Source: Candidatus Neomarinimicrobiota bacterium (GTDB taxonomy: Bacteria > Fidelibacterota > Marinisomatia > Marinisomatales > TCS55). From it: 64,000 nucleotides of DNA. This document shows positions 55,206 through 62,587 of this stretch, in pieces (the first letter of the stretch is position 1; each line of letters begins with the position of its first letter). A program made the translations under genes and the position numbers. The notes beneath the pieces are model-generated. The model was given only the letters and a program-made list of their open reading frames with translations. It was not told the origin of the DNA and made no database searches. The stretch covers positions 43,294-107,293 of the forward strand of contig JABIDL010000022.1 in NCBI GenBank assembly GCA_018651745.1, in the 5' to 3' direction.

Positions 55206-55964
55206 ATGAATAAAATCCCATCCATAGATCAATATCCGTTTATTAAAAACGAACTGCTGTTTGCCCAAAAAGCTTATTTCAAGGAATATGGGATTAAGGG
55301 GGCTTACAAACAGTTCAGACCAAACATCGGAAGGCCATGGTCCAGAAATGTGGTTCATCAATATTCGAAAACGGGGATTGGTCTCGAAATTGGAGTGGGC
55401 GAGCGGACCATTGCGCCGGTATCAAGAACCATTTTGAGCGACGCGTTTAAAAGTCATGGGGCGGATAAAACGAGTCTTGCAAAAGTTTTTTTCAAGGCGG
55501 ATAAAATTCCTTATGAGGATGATTCGTTTGGTTTCGTTTTCAGCGAACACGCGTTGGAGCACCTCTCCAATCCTCTAAAGGCTCTTTTCCATTGGAAAGA
55601 AAAACTGACGGTTGGGGGATTCTTGATCCTCTTTATCCCGCATCAGAAACGCTGTTGCGATATTTACCGCAAGCGCACTCCTATGGCGCACATTGTGGAT
55701 GATTACAAAAAGAATATTCAGGACGACGATCAAACACATGTGGATGATTTTTATGAAAATGTCGTTTTGAAGGGATTAACGCCTCACTACGAACATTTGA
55801 AAAAGGAAGAACTTGCTCGATCAGGCAACATGCACCACCATGTCTGGGTCCCTGAGGATCTTGTAGAACTATTAAACTATGTTGGATTAGAAACTGTTTA
55901 CTCAGAAGACTGTGTTCCAGATAGACGGGATAGTTTTGTGATTGTTGGTCAAAAGAAAAGTTAG
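55206..55964 (+). CDS. Class I SAM-dependent methyltransferase
   Basis: A 252-residue protein. GIGLEIGVGERTIAPV is the AdoMet-binding motif I. DDSFGFVFSEHALEHLSNP is motif II/post-II of the Methyltransf_11 type and HWKEKLTVGGFLILFIPHQ follows. The C-terminal part has AHIVDDYKKN and GNMHHHVWVPEDL. Substrate unknown; this subtype is common near surface-glycan genes. Its stop overlaps the end of the convergent arsC gene by 4 bp. Confidence 0.8.
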   Translation: MNKIPSIDQYPFIKNELLFAQKAYFKEYGIKGAYKQFRPNIGRPWSRNVVHQYSKTGIGLEIGVGERTIAPVSRTILSDAFKSHGADKTSLAKVFFKADKIPYEDDSFGFVFSEHALEHLSNPLKALFHWKEKLTVGGFLILFIPHQKRCCDIYRKRTPMAHIVDDYKKNIQDDDQTHVDDFYENVVLKGLTPHYEHLKKEELARSGNMHHHVWVPEDLVELLNYVGLETVYSEDCVPDRRDSFVIVGQKKS

Positions 55965-56311
55965 ACCAACTTCAGAACATTTCCCGGTGGCCGCCCCAAC
56001 ACCGCTTTTTCTCCCTTGACCATAATTGGCCGCTCCATCAGCTTGGGATAATCTGCCATAGCTTTAAACAATACATTATCATTTTCCAGCTTATCCTTTA
56101 AGTCCAATTCCTTGAAATCCTGTTCACCTCTTCGAATGAAATCCTTGGGACGTAAATCCATCATATCTGCCAGCGTTTTCAACTCATTTACAGATAGCGG
56201 ATGTTTCAGGTATTCTACAATATCCAGCTCAATGTCTTTGTCTTTGAGAAGCTGCACGGCTTCTCTGCTTTTACTTCACCTCGGGTTGTGGTATATCGTA
56301 ATTACGTCCAT
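55961..56311 (-). CDS. arsC: Arsenate reductase ArsC-type selenoprotein (in-frame UGA as Sec12)
   Basis: The frame from ATG 56311 reads MDVITIYHNPR, then TGA at 56278-56276, then SKSREAVQLLK on to a TAA at 55961 (116 residues). TGA replaces the catalytic Cys of the ArsC motif NPRCSKS. The Arg residues of R773 ArsC (R60, R94, R107, numbering as I recall it) fall at the same positions here: IRRGE, ERPIMV and GRPPG. The hairpin at 56247-56266 begins 9 nt after the UGA. The ribosome site AAGGAGG is ideal. Without recoding, translation would stop after 11 residues; a GTG start at 56257 would lose the active site. The flavoprotein gene lies 19 bp upstream. A sequencing error or pseudogene is the alternative. 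Confidence 0.8.
56247..56266 (-). promoter_or_regulatory. Bacterial SECIS-like hairpin after the UGA
   Basis: On the mRNA, GAGAAGC pairs perfectly with GCUUCUC over a CGUGCA loop. The stem begins 9 nt past the UGA. The loop carries G-U as bacterial SECIS apical loops usually do, and its position (about 17-23 nt after the UGA) lies at the near edge of the usual 16-37 nt range. Confidence 0.7.
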
Positions 56312-56330: not shown

Positions 56331-56984
56331 TTAAGTTTCTTCACAAATTTCTTTAAACGATTTCTTGGTGATAACCGGGACTTGCGAGTCTTCCGCCGGG
56401 TATCCAACGGGGATAAGAACATATGCCCGCTCATTATCAGGACGGTTGAGGATTTTCTGTAGAAATCCCATCGGGCTTGGAGTGTGAGTCAAGGTCGCCA
56501 AACCGGCGTTATGCAGAGCTGTTAACAGAAACCCAACCGCAATCCCAACAGATTCGTTTACATAATAATTCTTACTTTGGTCCTCATTGTTAAAATCATA
56601 AATCTGCTTAAATACCACAATGAGGTATGGTGCTGTTTCTAAAAACGGCTTGTGCCAATCTGTACCAAATTGGTTCAAATCTTTAAGCCATTCATCTGGC
56701 GCACGTGAAGAATAAAACTCTTTTTCTTCTTTTTCCGCGTAGATGCGAATATCCTTTTTTATGGCTGGGTCATTTACTATTGAAAAAAACCATGGCTGCT
56801 TATTTGCGCCGGATGGAGCTGATCCCGCTGTTTTAATAGCATTTTCTATTATTTCTTTTGGAAAGGACTTATTTGAAAATTCGCGGACTGTTCGTCGGGT
56901 TTTCATTAATTTTAGAAATTCTTCCGAGTGCTTTATCATTTCCGATTCGGGAGACGACTCAAAATTTAAGGGCTTAAATGACAT
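56331..56984 (-). CDS. Iodotyrosine deiodinase-like flavin nitroreductase-fold enzyme
   Basis: A 217-residue FMN protein of the nitroreductase superfamily. RRTVREFSN and PSGANKQPWFF are FMN-binding. The lid region has E87, Y91 and K112 (E-x3-Y, then 21 residues on to Lys), the same spacing as E157, Y161 and K182 of mammalian iodotyrosine deiodinase as I recall them. It continues with THTPSPMG, whose Thr lies where IYD hydrogen-bonds flavin N5. LNRPDNERAYVLIPVGYPA closes the match. It likely dehalogenates a halotyrosine. The start at 56984 is set by MSFKPLNF with AAGGAAG upstream; a longer frame is open to 57062. Confidence 0.78.
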   Translation of the reverse strand: MSFKPLNFESSPESEMIKHSEEFLKLMKTRRTVREFSNKSFPKEIIENAIKTAGSAPSGANKQPWFFSIVNDPAIKKDIRIYAEKEEKEFYSSRAPDEWLKDLNQFGTDWHKPFLETAPYLIVVFKQIYDFNNEDQSKNYYVNESVGIAVGFLLTALHNAGLATLTHTPSPMGFLQKILNRPDNERAYVLIPVGYPAEDSQVPVITKKSFKEICEET

Positions 56985-57066
56985 GATTATTCTTCCTTCT
57001 GTTATCAACAGTTTAATTGAATTTAATCCTTGCATCATAGAACTCCTTTCGTAAAAACTCACTCAT

Positions 57067-59099: not shown

Positions 59100-60347
59100 A
59101 TGAAAAAAATCTTATTAATCCCCGTGGTATTCATTTTGACCAGCAGTGCTTTTGCTGATACCTGTGTGGAGTGCCATACAAAAATCACACCAGGCGTCGT
59201 CACTGACTGGGAAATCAGCAGACATTTTGATGAAGAAGTTGGGTGTGAATCATGTCATGGTGAAGGACACAATACGATGGACGATTTCGCGTTGACGGAA
59301 ATTCCGACAGCAGAAACTTGTGCTTCCTGCCATGAAGATCAGGTTGGGCAATATAAAAAGGGCAAACATTCATTTGCGTGGGCTGCTTTAAAGGCTATGC
59401 CCACAACTCACTTTAAGCCTATGGAATTAATCGATGGAGGAAAAGGATGCGGTGGGTGTCATAAAATTGGAATAAAAAGCGATGATGATATAAAACAACT
59501 TAAAGCTGATGGTCATATATTTGGGTATTCATCCTGTGACGCATGCCATACGCGCCATGTTTTCTCGTTAGAAGAGGCCCGTCAGCCACAAGCATGTCAA
59601 ACCTGCCATATGGGTTTTGACCATCCCCAGTGGGAAATGTATTCATCTTCAAAACATGGTGTTAGATATTTATTAAAACAAAACGGCATCCTTCCAAAAG
59701 AAACGTCAGCGCCAACATGTCAAACTTGCCACATGCAGGATGGTAATCACGAAGTAAGAACCGCTTGGGGGTTTCTTGCGGTTCGAACCAATGGTCTTGC
59801 ACCATATCCGGGCGAAAGCGATGAGTGGTGGGCTGACCGAGTAACTATTTTACAGGCGTTGGGCGTGTTGGATCCAGAAGGAAAACCCACAGCAAGACTT
59901 GAGGTTGTAGATAAGGCCCAAGTGGCGCGATTAACGGCAGAAGGCTTTGATAAAGAACGTGATAAAATGATTGCCATTTGCGGCGAATGCCATTCGGAAA
60001 ATTTTGCTCGGGGTGAACTTGAAAAAGGAGATGAAATAATCCGCAGAGGTGATGAATTGCTGGCAGAAGCCATCCGAATTATCGCAGATCTATATAAAGA
60101 CAAACTGTTAGAAAAGCCTGATCATTATGCTTACGATTTCCCGGATTTGCTTGCATTTCATGACGCGCCCACTCCTATTGAACAAACTTTATTTGTGATG
60201 CATTTGAAGCATCGCATGCGGTTGTTCCAAGGCGCGTTTCATAATAACCCAGATTATACACTCTGGTATGGATGGAATGAAATGGTGATGGACCTCACCG
60301 AGATAAAACATATGGCGGCAGAAATTCGTGAAGATAGTGGTGGATGA
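59100..60347 (+). CDS. Octahaem cytochrome c of the hydroxylamine-oxidoreductase family
   Basis: A 415-residue periplasmic protein with a signal peptide (LIPVVFILTSSAFA) and eight CXXCH sites at Cys22, 49, 74, 117, 146, 166, 207 and 294. After the last haem the C-terminal helical part has FQGAFHNNPDYTLWYGWN, as in HAO/octahaem nitrite-reductase-like proteins. Such enzymes interconvert hydroxylamine, NO and nitrite or reduce nitrite/other oxoanions. Whether the cross-linking Tyr of true HAO is present cannot be settled by eye. A terminator follows. Confidence 0.8.
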   Translation: MKKILLIPVVFILTSSAFADTCVECHTKITPGVVTDWEISRHFDEEVGCESCHGEGHNTMDDFALTEIPTAETCASCHEDQVGQYKKGKHSFAWAALKAMPTTHFKPMELIDGGKGCGGCHKIGIKSDDDIKQLKADGHIFGYSSCDACHTRHVFSLEEARQPQACQTCHMGFDHPQWEMYSSSKHGVRYLLKQNGILPKETSAPTCQTCHMQDGNHEVRTAWGFLAVRTNGLAPYPGESDEWWADRVTILQALGVLDPEGKPTARLEVVDKAQVARLTAEGFDKERDKMIAICGECHSENFARGELEKGDEIIRRGDELLAEAIRIIADLYKDKLLEKPDHYAYDFPDLLAFHDAPTPIEQTLFVMHLKHRMRLFQGAFHNNPDYTLWYGWNEMVMDLTEIKHMAAEIREDSGG

Positions 60348-60401
60348 TATTTATCAAAAATGTTTAAGTAGATTTACTACATAACATTTATTTTGTAAAT
60401 T

Positions 60402-60434
60402 GAATGCCCCGCTTAGGCAGGGCATTCTTTTTTT
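60402..60434 (+). terminator. Rho-independent terminator after the HAO-like gene
   Basis: GAATGCCC and GGGCATTC form a stem over CGCTTAGGCA, followed by a run of T. It separates the HAO-like gene from the c554-like gene, so expression of the two may be uncoupled or read-through dependent. Confidence 0.82.
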
Positions 60435-60459
60435 AATCATGTAATCAAAAAGGCAATCG

Positions 60460-61065
60460 ATGAAAATTTTTATTCTACTCATGGCAACATCACTCTCATT
60501 TGGTCAAGAATATGTTGGAAGCAAAAAATGCAAATCTTGTCACAATAAAGAAAAATCCGGTGCACAATATGTCGTTTGGAACAAGTCTCCTCACGCCCAT
60601 TCCTACGAAACTTTAAAAACACCCGCCGCTAAAGAGACGGCAATTAATCTTGGAATTACAACAAACCCTTGGGAAACTCCCGAATGTGTCCGTTGCCATA
60701 CTACAGCCTTTGGAAAAGGGGGATATGAGCTCAAAGATGAGGCCTTTTGGAATCAAGTAACGAAAAAAGACAAACCAACCAAAGATGTCAAACGTATGGC
60801 GGGCTTGCAGAATGTTGGTTGCGAAGCGTGTCATGGCCCGGGAAGTAAATATAAATCTAAAAAGAAAATGGACCATATTTTTTACGGCAAAATAGACCAA
60901 GAAAAGTTTGGGCTTATTACACCATCTGAAAAAGTATGCAAACAGTGTCACAATGAGGAAAGCCCTAATTTCAAAGCATTTGATTATGAAAAAAGCTACG
61001 CAGCAATAGCACACCCATATCCAGATGGATTTAGGAAAATGAAAATGAAAAAAAGAAAAAAATAA
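60460..61065 (+). CDS. Tetrahaem cytochrome c554-like protein
   Basis: A 201-residue periplasmic cytochrome with signal peptide (MKIFILLMATSLSFG) and four CXXCH at Cys24, 76, 121 and 160, plus PHAHSYETL, the cytochrome c554/c-prime family pattern. In nitrifiers c554 takes electrons from HAO. The highly basic C-terminal tail (KMKMKKRKK) may interact with membrane or partner. Its last base overlaps the Rieske start. Confidence 0.85.
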   Translation: MKIFILLMATSLSFGQEYVGSKKCKSCHNKEKSGAQYVVWNKSPHAHSYETLKTPAAKETAINLGITTNPWETPECVRCHTTAFGKGGYELKDEAFWNQVTKKDKPTKDVKRMAGLQNVGCEACHGPGSKYKSKKKMDHIFYGKIDQEKFGLITPSEKVCKQCHNEESPNFKAFDYEKSYAAIAHPYPDGFRKMKMKKRKK

Positions 61066-61523
61066 TGGGAAAGGATAAATCAAAGAAAACACAAAGTCGG
61101 CGGACTTTTCTCGATTGGGCATTGAGAGGTGGGCTAACTGCTTGGTTTGGAAGCATGGCATATCCTGTTTTCAAATATATGATTCCACCCGATGCGCCCG
61201 AACTAAATATTAACAGAATTGAAGTGGGAACCTTGGCTGATTTTCCCCTCGGTTCATCAAAAATTATACGAATGGGTAGAAAACCTGTTTTAATTCTTCG
61301 GAAGAAAGACGGCAATTTTAAAGCCTTGGAAGCAACCTGTACACATTTAGACTGTACCGTCCAATTTAAAAGAGAAACGGAACAAGTATGGTGTGCTTGC
61401 CATAACGGTTTTTATGATGTTGAGGGTCGCAATGTTTCAGGACCGCCTCCTCGTCCTCTTGGAAGATTTAACGTAGTTCTTAAAGATGATAAAGTTATCA
61501 TTACAAAGCCGGATTTAATTTGA
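61065..61523 (+). CDS. Rieske 2Fe-2S subunit of a bc-type complex
   Basis: A 152-residue protein. A twin-arginine signal anchor (SRRTFLDWAL, helix about 22-40) precedes a Rieske fold with cluster boxes CTHLDC (first) and CACHNG (second). The first box has Asp in place of Gly. It carries electrons from quinol to cytochrome c in the complex with the adjacent cytochrome b. It overlaps the c554 gene by 1 bp and the cytochrome b gene by 4 bp. Confidence 0.9.
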   Translation: MGKDKSKKTQSRRTFLDWALRGGLTAWFGSMAYPVFKYMIPPDAPELNINRIEVGTLADFPLGSSKIIRMGRKPVLILRKKDGNFKALEATCTHLDCTVQFKRETEQVWCACHNGFYDVEGRNVSGPPPRPLGRFNVVLKDDKVIITKPDLI

Positions 61524-62587
61524 ATAAAATCTTTCAATGGATTAATGATCGCTTAAATTTGAGCGAAGCTATTGCTTTTGCGACTAAAAAAAGAGTTCCT
61601 GTATTTTATGGAACCGTTTGGTACTATCTAGGAGGTATTTCACTTTTTCTTTTTGCTACTCAACTTGTTACCGGCATTCTTCTTATTTTATATTACCAGC
61701 CGGGTTCTACAACAGCCTTCGAGAGTGTAAAATTTATTGTTAGTAAAGTCGAATTTGGATGGCTTATTCGAGAACTACACAGTTGGTCTGCGAATTTATT
61801 CATCCTATTTGTATTTGCTCATATGTTTACGGTCTTTTTTGCAAAAGCGTACCGAAAACCGCGAGAGATGACTTGGATTTCGGGAATGATTCTTCTTGTT
61901 TTGGGGCTTGCTTTCGGGTTTTCAGGATATTTGTTACCTTGGAATGAGTTAGCATATTTTGCCACTAAAGTTGGTTCTGATATTGCCGGCGCCGTTCCTT
62001 GGGTGGGTGAATTCTTATTACAAGTTTTACGAGCTGGGGACGAAGTAACCGGCGCAACCCTCACTCGGTTTTATGGGATACACATTGCAGTTCTGCCTGG
62101 TATATTTACTATCATTCTCGCTTTTCACTTAATGTTAGTTCAGATTCAAGGAATGAGCGTACCGCCTGAAATCGAAAAACTTCCGGAAGAAAAAAGACAA
62201 ACCATTCCATTTTTCCCAGACTTTGTTTTACGAGACTTTATGGTTTGGTTAATTGTGTTAAACGTTGTGGCATTGCTCGCCGTTTTCTTTCCATGGGAAT
62301 TAGGGAATAAAGCAGATCCCCTGGCTCCGGCGCCGGCCGGGATTCGCCCTGAATGGTATTTTATGTTTATGTTTCAAACATTAAAATTAATTCCTGCTCA
62401 TGTGTTCTTTTTGGAGGGCGAGTTGTTCGGAATTTTATTATTTTCTATCGGTGGGCTCATCTGGTTTTTCGTGCCCTTTTTAGATAAAAAAGCACATAAA
62501 GGAATCCGATCAAAATTTTGGACTTGGTTTGGTATTCTATTAATTATTTATATGATAATATTGACAATTTGGGGGTACTTGGTTTGA
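61520..62587 (+). CDS. Cytochrome b of a b6f/bc1-type complex
   Basis: A 355-residue membrane protein with about seven to eight helices. The first haem-ligand helix pair has LHSWSANLFILFVFAH, giving His-x13-His, and the second has HIAVLPGIFTIILAFH, giving His-x14-His, which is the cytochrome b6-like spacing. PEWYFMFMF carries the quinol-site PEWY motif. It is shorter than usual cytochrome b. TTG at 61520 overlaps the TGA of the Rieske gene, so TTG is the start. It oxidises quinol with the Rieske subunit. Confidence 0.92.
   Translation: MNKIFQWINDRLNLSEAIAFATKKRVPVFYGTVWYYLGGISLFLFATQLVTGILLILYYQPGSTTAFESVKFIVSKVEFGWLIRELHSWSANLFILFVFAHMFTVFFAKAYRKPREMTWISGMILLVLGLAFGFSGYLLPWNELAYFATKVGSDIAGAVPWVGEFLLQVLRAGDEVTGATLTRFYGIHIAVLPGIFTIILAFHLMLVQIQGMSVPPEIEKLPEEKRQTIPFFPDFVLRDFMVWLIVLNVVALLAVFFPWELGNKADPLAPAPAGIRPEWYFMFMFQTLKLIPAHVFFLEGELFGILLFSIGGLIWFFVPFLDKKAHKGIRSKFWTWFGILLIIYMIILTIWGYLV

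What the first reader, a model, noticed from the sequence alone, without database searches (positions are those of the whole stretch)
55961..56311. Hidden selenoprotein: ArsC with an in-frame UGA at the catalytic Cys
The frame from 56311 keeps full ArsC similarity on both sides of a TGA at 56278-56276, which sits exactly where the catalytic Cys12 of YHNPxCSKS stands. The three substrate Arg residues fit the R773 ArsC positions once residue 12 is counted as Sec. A perfect 7-bp hairpin with a GU-containing loop follows 9 nt later, in the place of a bacterial SECIS. Normal gene calling either drops the first 18 codons or ends after 11 residues. Selenocysteine ArsC-like proteins have been reported from marine metagenomes, as I recall, but this one is not visible to standard annotation.
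Basis: partly seen in the sequence, partly recalled or inferred. Interest (0 to 1): 0.92.

Follow-up and report, generated by a model that had tools for sequence, protein, structure and literature searches.

The report
Selenocysteine arsenate reductase in a marine bacterium
A small gene that normal annotation would cut in two is almost certainly a whole enzyme of the arsenate reductase family whose catalytic cysteine is replaced by selenocysteine; such enzymes were already reported from ocean metagenomes, and this one adds a host lineage (Neomarinimicrobiota), a signal hairpin that sits in two alternative places among its relatives, and a conserved flavoenzyme gene upstream of it.

Summary
An arsC gene (56311-55961, minus strand) has an in-frame TGA at codon 12, where ArsC has its catalytic Cys. 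The genome encodes tRNA-Sec, SelA, SelB and SelD, and its selD has a TGA of its own. Of 61 homologues examined, 52 have TGA at exactly this codon; the other nine have Cys. A hairpin that meets the published bacterial SECIS rules follows the TGA. It covaries and exceeds synonymous-codon shuffles, while Cys homologues lack it. No other TGA in the window passes the same filter. The selenoprotein reading is therefore secure by comparative evidence; expression was not tested. It is not a new family: Sec-ArsC with a UxxS motif was described from Global Ocean Sampling data in 2008. What seems new: (i) carriage across Neomarinimicrobiota; (ii) the SECIS hairpin lies in one of two registers 13 nt apart, the distal one with an extra hairpin before it; (iii) an iodotyrosine-deiodinase-like flavoenzyme gene lies upstream on the same strand in 27 of 27 genomes with both on one contig, whereas the arsenite pump ACR3 shows no association and ArsB is absent. 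The physiological substrate is less certain than the selenocysteine.

The parts
55961..56311 (-). arsC with in-frame Sec-UGA: 116 aa, Sec12 in motif U-S-K-S (UxxS); contains no Cys, so Sec12 is the only redox-active chalcogen residue
   Evidence: AlphaFold model pLDDT 95.8, best PDB matches are arsenate reductases 3rdw, 3f0i, 1i9d
56276..56278 (-). TGA, codon 12, read as selenocysteine
   Evidence: TGA at this codon in 52 of 61 homologues examined from the order; TGC/TGT in 9
56246..56265 (-). SECIS hairpin (register A): stem GAGAAGC/GCUUCUC, loop CGUGCA at 56258-56253; 10 nt after the TGA, loop 17 nt after the TGA
   Evidence: meets the bSECIS constraints quoted in PMC13188914
56317..56322 (-). 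Shine-Dalgarno AGGAGG, 5 nt before the ATG
   Evidence: read from sequence
56331..57062 (-). FMN nitroreductase-family protein resembling iodotyrosine deiodinase, 19 bp upstream of arsC on the same strand (probable operon); homology starts near residue 27, so the true start is probably internal
   Evidence: 5ko7 E 1e-80, mammalian IYD E about 1e-55; linkage

Best explanation
The gene encodes a glutaredoxin-type ArsC-family reductase whose nucleophile is selenocysteine at position 12. During translation the hairpin 10 nt after the UGA is bound by SelB carrying Sec-tRNA(Sec), and UGA is read as Sec instead of stop (inferred from machinery, hairpin and conservation; not shown by expression). Sec12 at the start of the first helix, with His8, Arg60, Arg94 and Arg107, would attack the oxyanion substrate, most simply arsenate; as the protein has no Cys, the adduct must be resolved by an external thiol such as glutathione/glutaredoxin or an equivalent (inferred from the known chemistry of R773 ArsC). 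It is a member of the Sec-ArsC (UxxS) family described in 2008. I put about 0.97 on Sec insertion and about 0.6 on arsenate being the physiological substrate; the confidence given is for a functional Sec-ArsC selenoprotein.
For: Sec machinery: tRNA-Sec 68.7 bits, also called tRNA-SeC(tca) by ARAGORN; selA 502 bits and selB 355 bits side by side; selD 402 bits with a TGA of its own. TGA at codon 12 in 52 of 61 homologues from the order, Cys codons in the others, and in most class-level members. SECIS: full 7-bp stem plus CGUG loop in 14 of 30 register-A genes against a mean of 0.07 in synonymous shuffles (max 3), and in 20 of 21 register-B genes against 0.64 (max 4); compensatory pairs such as G-C/U-A at +18/+27 (27 and 21 genes); Cys homologues pair poorly and have no CGUG loop in register A. 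Of the 25 UGA genomes in the first set of 61, 23 show SelB over cut-off or tRNA-Sec (my count; the other two are 86% complete). ArsC identity by family model and fold.
Against: No expression, mass spectrometry or 75Se data. Arsenate specificity is not supported by context: ACR3 is absent from this genome and not associated with ArsC in the order (10 of 59 with, 8 of 71 without, p = 0.45), and ArsB is absent from all 130 genomes. The nearest solved structures, 3f0i and 3rdw, come from structural-genomics-type entries titled (putative) arsenate reductase; R773 ArsC, the characterised one, is only 33% identical.
Confidence: 0.95

Rival explanations
1. Pseudogene or assembly/sequencing error: a Cys codon TGC/TGT became TGA by mutation or error.
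For: TGA is one substitution from TGC and TGT; only one genome sequence is held for the window itself.
Against: The same TGA stands in 52 homologous genes, down to about 39% identity; the rest of the frame is intact with R60, R94 and R107 invariant; a Shine-Dalgarno is kept; the hairpin is under synonymous constraint.
Confidence: 0.01
2. Real Sec protein, but not an arsenate reductase in the cell: a selenium-based thiol oxidoreductase that serves the iodotyrosine-deiodinase-like flavoenzyme encoded just upstream.
For: The flavoenzyme gene lies upstream on the same strand in 27 of 27 genomes with both on one contig, 18 within 3 kb; co-occurrence odds ratio 11.5. No link to ACR3 and no ArsB.
Against: The arginines that bind arsenate in R773 ArsC are invariant and the family model is an ArsC equivalog; the co-occurrence test is not corrected for shared ancestry; in 20 of the 47 genomes with both genes they lie on different contigs.
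Confidence: 0.3
3. UGA is reassigned to another amino acid, or simply read through without selenocysteine.
For: The frame beyond TGA is open.
Against: The only exchange partner of TGA at this codon is Cys; tRNA-Sec and SelB are present; no other TGA in the window passes the open-frame plus SECIS filter, and the neighbouring genes are intact under the standard code.
Confidence: 0.01

Closest known systems
Arsenate reductase (ArsC) 1, UxxS selenoprotein family of the Global Ocean Sampling set (PMC2398784; listed as TIGR00014, UxxS in PMC13188914)
   Same: Same protein family (pfam03960/TIGR00014), same UxxS motif, marine bacteria, Cys/Sec pair at the active site
   Different: Those were metagenomic sequences without a host in the table I read; here the host lineage, the complete Sec machinery, the SECIS in two registers and the flanking flavoenzyme are seen
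E. coli plasmid R773 ArsC (1i9d and mutants)
   Same: Fold (Foldseek TM 0.91), Arg60, Arg94, Arg107 and the nucleophile position 12
   Different: Cys instead of Sec; 138-141 aa against 116; 33% identity; belongs to an ars operon with an arsenite pump, absent here
Arsenate reductases of Vibrio cholerae (3f0i) and Yersinia pestis (3rdw)
   Same: Closest solved structures, 44-46% identity, same length
   Different: Cys instead of Sec
Arsenate reductase-like UxxC selenoprotein (NF041106)
   Same: Another Sec protein of the ArsC/COG1393 superfamily (PMC13188914, PMC9312934)
   Different: Resolving Cys in the motif (UxxC), absent here; NF041106 was not among the hits of the window protein

Membership tests
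ArsC, glutaredoxin type (TIGR00014 / PF03960) | Score above the curated cut-off | tested here: met
   130.3 bits against 106.05; 60.2 against 24
ArsC, glutaredoxin type (TIGR00014 / PF03960) | Nucleophile at residue 12 and Arg60, Arg94, Arg107 | tested here: met
   All invariant in 29 rows, with Sec or Cys at 12
ArsC, glutaredoxin type (TIGR00014 / PF03960) | Arsenate reductase activity | not testable with these tools
   No biochemistry; no association with ACR3, no ArsB
Bacterial selenoprotein | In-frame UGA aligned with a catalytic Cys of homologues | tested here: met
   52 UGA, 9 Cys among 61 genes examined
Bacterial selenoprotein | bSECIS: apical loop 3-9 nt, stem 4-16 bp, G in the first two loop positions, 16-37 nt from UGA, energy at or below -7.5 kcal/mol | tested here: met
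   Loop 6 nt CGUGCA, 7 bp, G second, 17 nt, -8.9 kcal/mol (constraints from PMC13188914)
Bacterial selenoprotein | selA, selB, selD and tRNA-Sec in the genome | tested here: met
Bacterial selenoprotein | Selenium shown in the protein | not testable with these tools
   Needs mass spectrometry or 75Se labelling
Sec-ArsC UxxS family (GOS ArsC 1) | pfam03960 with UxxS motif | tested here: met
   U12-S-K-S15; family as listed in PMC2398784
Arsenic-resistance (ars) operon | Linked arsenite efflux gene (ArsB or ACR3) | tested here: not met
   Neither found in this genome; neighbours are a flavoenzyme, a PAP2 protein and a methyltransferase

The most novel reading that the evidence does not exclude
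Within one orthologous selenoprotein the SECIS has moved 13 nt (loop at +20 in one set, +33 in another) while the Sec codon stayed put, changing the reading frame of the conserved CGUG loop and shifting the synonymous constraint to other codons; the distal form recruited a second small hairpin in the gap that may bring the loop back within reach of SelB. In addition the Sec-ArsC forms a functional pair with an iodotyrosine-deiodinase-like flavoenzyme rather than with an arsenite pump.
Probability: 0.5. Interest if true: 0.6.

Novelty: new member of a known kind. Interest (0 to 1): 0.48.

Why it matters
It places a known but little-studied marine selenoprotein family in an identifiable lineage and shows it is the prevailing ArsC form there. 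The two SECIS registers in one family give a natural experiment on how far a bacterial SECIS can move and what spacing SelB tolerates. The conserved flavoenzyme partner and the missing arsenite pump question the assumption that the enzyme serves arsenic resistance.

Tried and rejected
Rfam scan of the locus: no match. Genome-contig scan with the single protein found no relative; with the alignment it gave 80 loci, 78 Cys and 2 Sec, both Sec from Neomarinimicrobiota. Tested and rejected: an ACR3 or ArsB partner; the idea that Cys forms only follow loss of Sec machinery (G041 has a Cys form, SelB over cut-off and tRNA-Sec); the gene pair outside the phylum (only one weak, partial nitroreductase match in the flanks of 80 loci). 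Genes lying between the flavoenzyme and arsC in relatives differ, so only the pair is conserved. The tree rests on 101 columns and cannot settle the number of register changes. No paper in the held library names iodotyrosine deiodinase, arsenate reductase and nitroreductase together.

Full report
1. What is there. On the minus strand a frame starts at ATG 56311, 5 nt after AGGAGG, meets TGA at 56278-56276 as codon 12 and runs on to TAA ending at 55961. Read through, it is a 116-aa ArsC: TIGR00014 130.3 bits (cut-off 106), PF03960 60.2 bits. The AlphaFold model has pLDDT 95.8 and its best PDB matches are arsenate reductases 3rdw, 3f0i and E. coli R773 ArsC. Residues 12, 16, 60, 94 and 107 are invariant among 29 homologues, with Sec counted as Cys, and the alignment to R773 ArsC has no offset. 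The protein has no cysteine, so without Sec it has no nucleophile.

2. The TGA is conserved. In the first 61 genomes, 30 had the gene: 25 with one in-frame TGA and 5 without. After widening to the order, 52 of 61 genes examined have TGA exactly at codon 12 and nine have TGC or TGT. At class level TGA also prevails, and Cys forms occur as well. Two named genomes carrying the TGA form are Candidatus Neomarinimicrobiota, which places the window in or near that phylum; the window's own record is unnamed.

3. The genome can insert selenocysteine. tRNA-Sec scores 68.7 bits and ARAGORN gives anticodon tca. selA and selB lie side by side on contig C40. selD on C8 itself has an in-frame TGA in a GSG-U-ACK motif. 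SelB over cut-off was found in 50 and tRNA-Sec in 47 of 61 relatives.

4. The SECIS. Ten nt after the TGA stands GAGAAGC-CGUGCA-GCUUCUC (56265-56246), -8.9 kcal/mol. It meets each constraint of the bSECIS model as quoted in PMC13188914. A scan of all TGAs in the 64-kb window for open frames on both sides plus such a hairpin returned only this one. Among homologues the hairpin occurs in two registers. Register A (stem +13 to +32, loop at +20, counted from the T of TGA) is found in the window and 29 other genes, all with CGUG in the loop; class-level members have hairpins in the same place, often with CGUG, AGUU or CGUU. Register B (stem +26 to +44, loop CGUGA at +33) is found in 21 genes, mostly of the window's own family. 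No gene has both. With the protein held fixed and codons shuffled, full stem plus loop is seen in 0.07 of 30 genes for A (observed 14) and 0.64 of 21 for B (observed 20). Pairs covary: +18/+27 is G-C in 27 and U-A in 21 register-A genes; +27/+43 is C-G in 17 and U-A in 4, and +30/+40 is U-A in 17 and C-G in 4 register-B genes. Cys homologues lack both hairpins. Related sequences are not independent, so these counts are not probabilities.

5. The constraint moves with the register. Register-A genes spell residues 18-19 mostly GCC/TCC-GTG and vary at 23-24; register-B genes spell 23-24 always CGT-GAC and vary at 18-19. Register-B genes also tend to form a 5-bp hairpin at +10 to +24, between TGA and SECIS: 4.33 of 5 pairs on average against 2.86 in shuffles, reached in 0 of 1000. 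Some Cys homologues can pair there too, so its role is a hypothesis: it could shorten the distance from UGA to the displaced loop. The class-level distribution suggests A is the older register. The gene tree, on 101 columns, needs three changes between A and B, but well-supported branches do not exclude one origin of B.

6. Context. The gene 19 bp upstream encodes a nitroreductase-family protein close to 5ko7 (E 1e-80) and to mammalian iodotyrosine deiodinases (E about 1e-55). In the order, 47 genomes have both genes; in 27 they are on one contig, and in all 27 the flavoenzyme is upstream on the same strand, 18 within 3 kb. Both Sec and Cys forms have this neighbour. In contrast ACR3 is not associated and ArsB is absent. 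The pair was not seen outside the phylum in the flanks of 80 loci, bar one weak partial match.

7. Verdict. Shown by computation: intact ArsC frame with a conserved UGA, complete machinery, a SECIS under selection. Inferred: Sec insertion in the cell, Sec12 as nucleophile, external thiol as reductant. Open: the physiological substrate. The family is known: the Global Ocean Sampling study listed arsenate reductase 1, pfam03960, UxxS, 77 sequences (PMC2398784), repeated in PMC9312934 and PMC13188914. The window is a new member; the register shift and the flavoenzyme linkage are, as far as the few papers I searched show, additions.

Noticed in passing
L024, L029, L031, L058 and others; +26 to +44 after the TGA: In 21 relatives the SECIS sits 13 nt further downstream than in the window, with an extra 5-bp hairpin in the gap.
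   Followed up: partly
window 56331-57062: Iodotyrosine-deiodinase-like flavoenzyme gene directly upstream; in 27 of 27 genomes with both genes on one contig it is upstream of arsC on the same strand.
   Followed up: partly
L019 1531-1533: selD of the same genome is itself a selenoprotein gene, with TGA in GSG-U-ACK.
   Followed up: partly
L190 and L201 (genome G166): One class-level genome carries both a Sec and a Cys copy of ArsC.
   Followed up: no
L173 (genome G104): A TGA gene whose loop lacks CGUG; an alternative hairpin with loop UGGUUACU may serve.
   Followed up: no
genomes G030 and G046: Two tRNA-Sec matches over cut-off in one genome; duplication or mixed bins not distinguished.
   Followed up: no
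window 59100-62587: Two proteins with several CxxCH motifs (candidate multihaem cytochromes) followed by Rieske-like and cytochrome b-like genes, read from the translations only.
   Followed up: no
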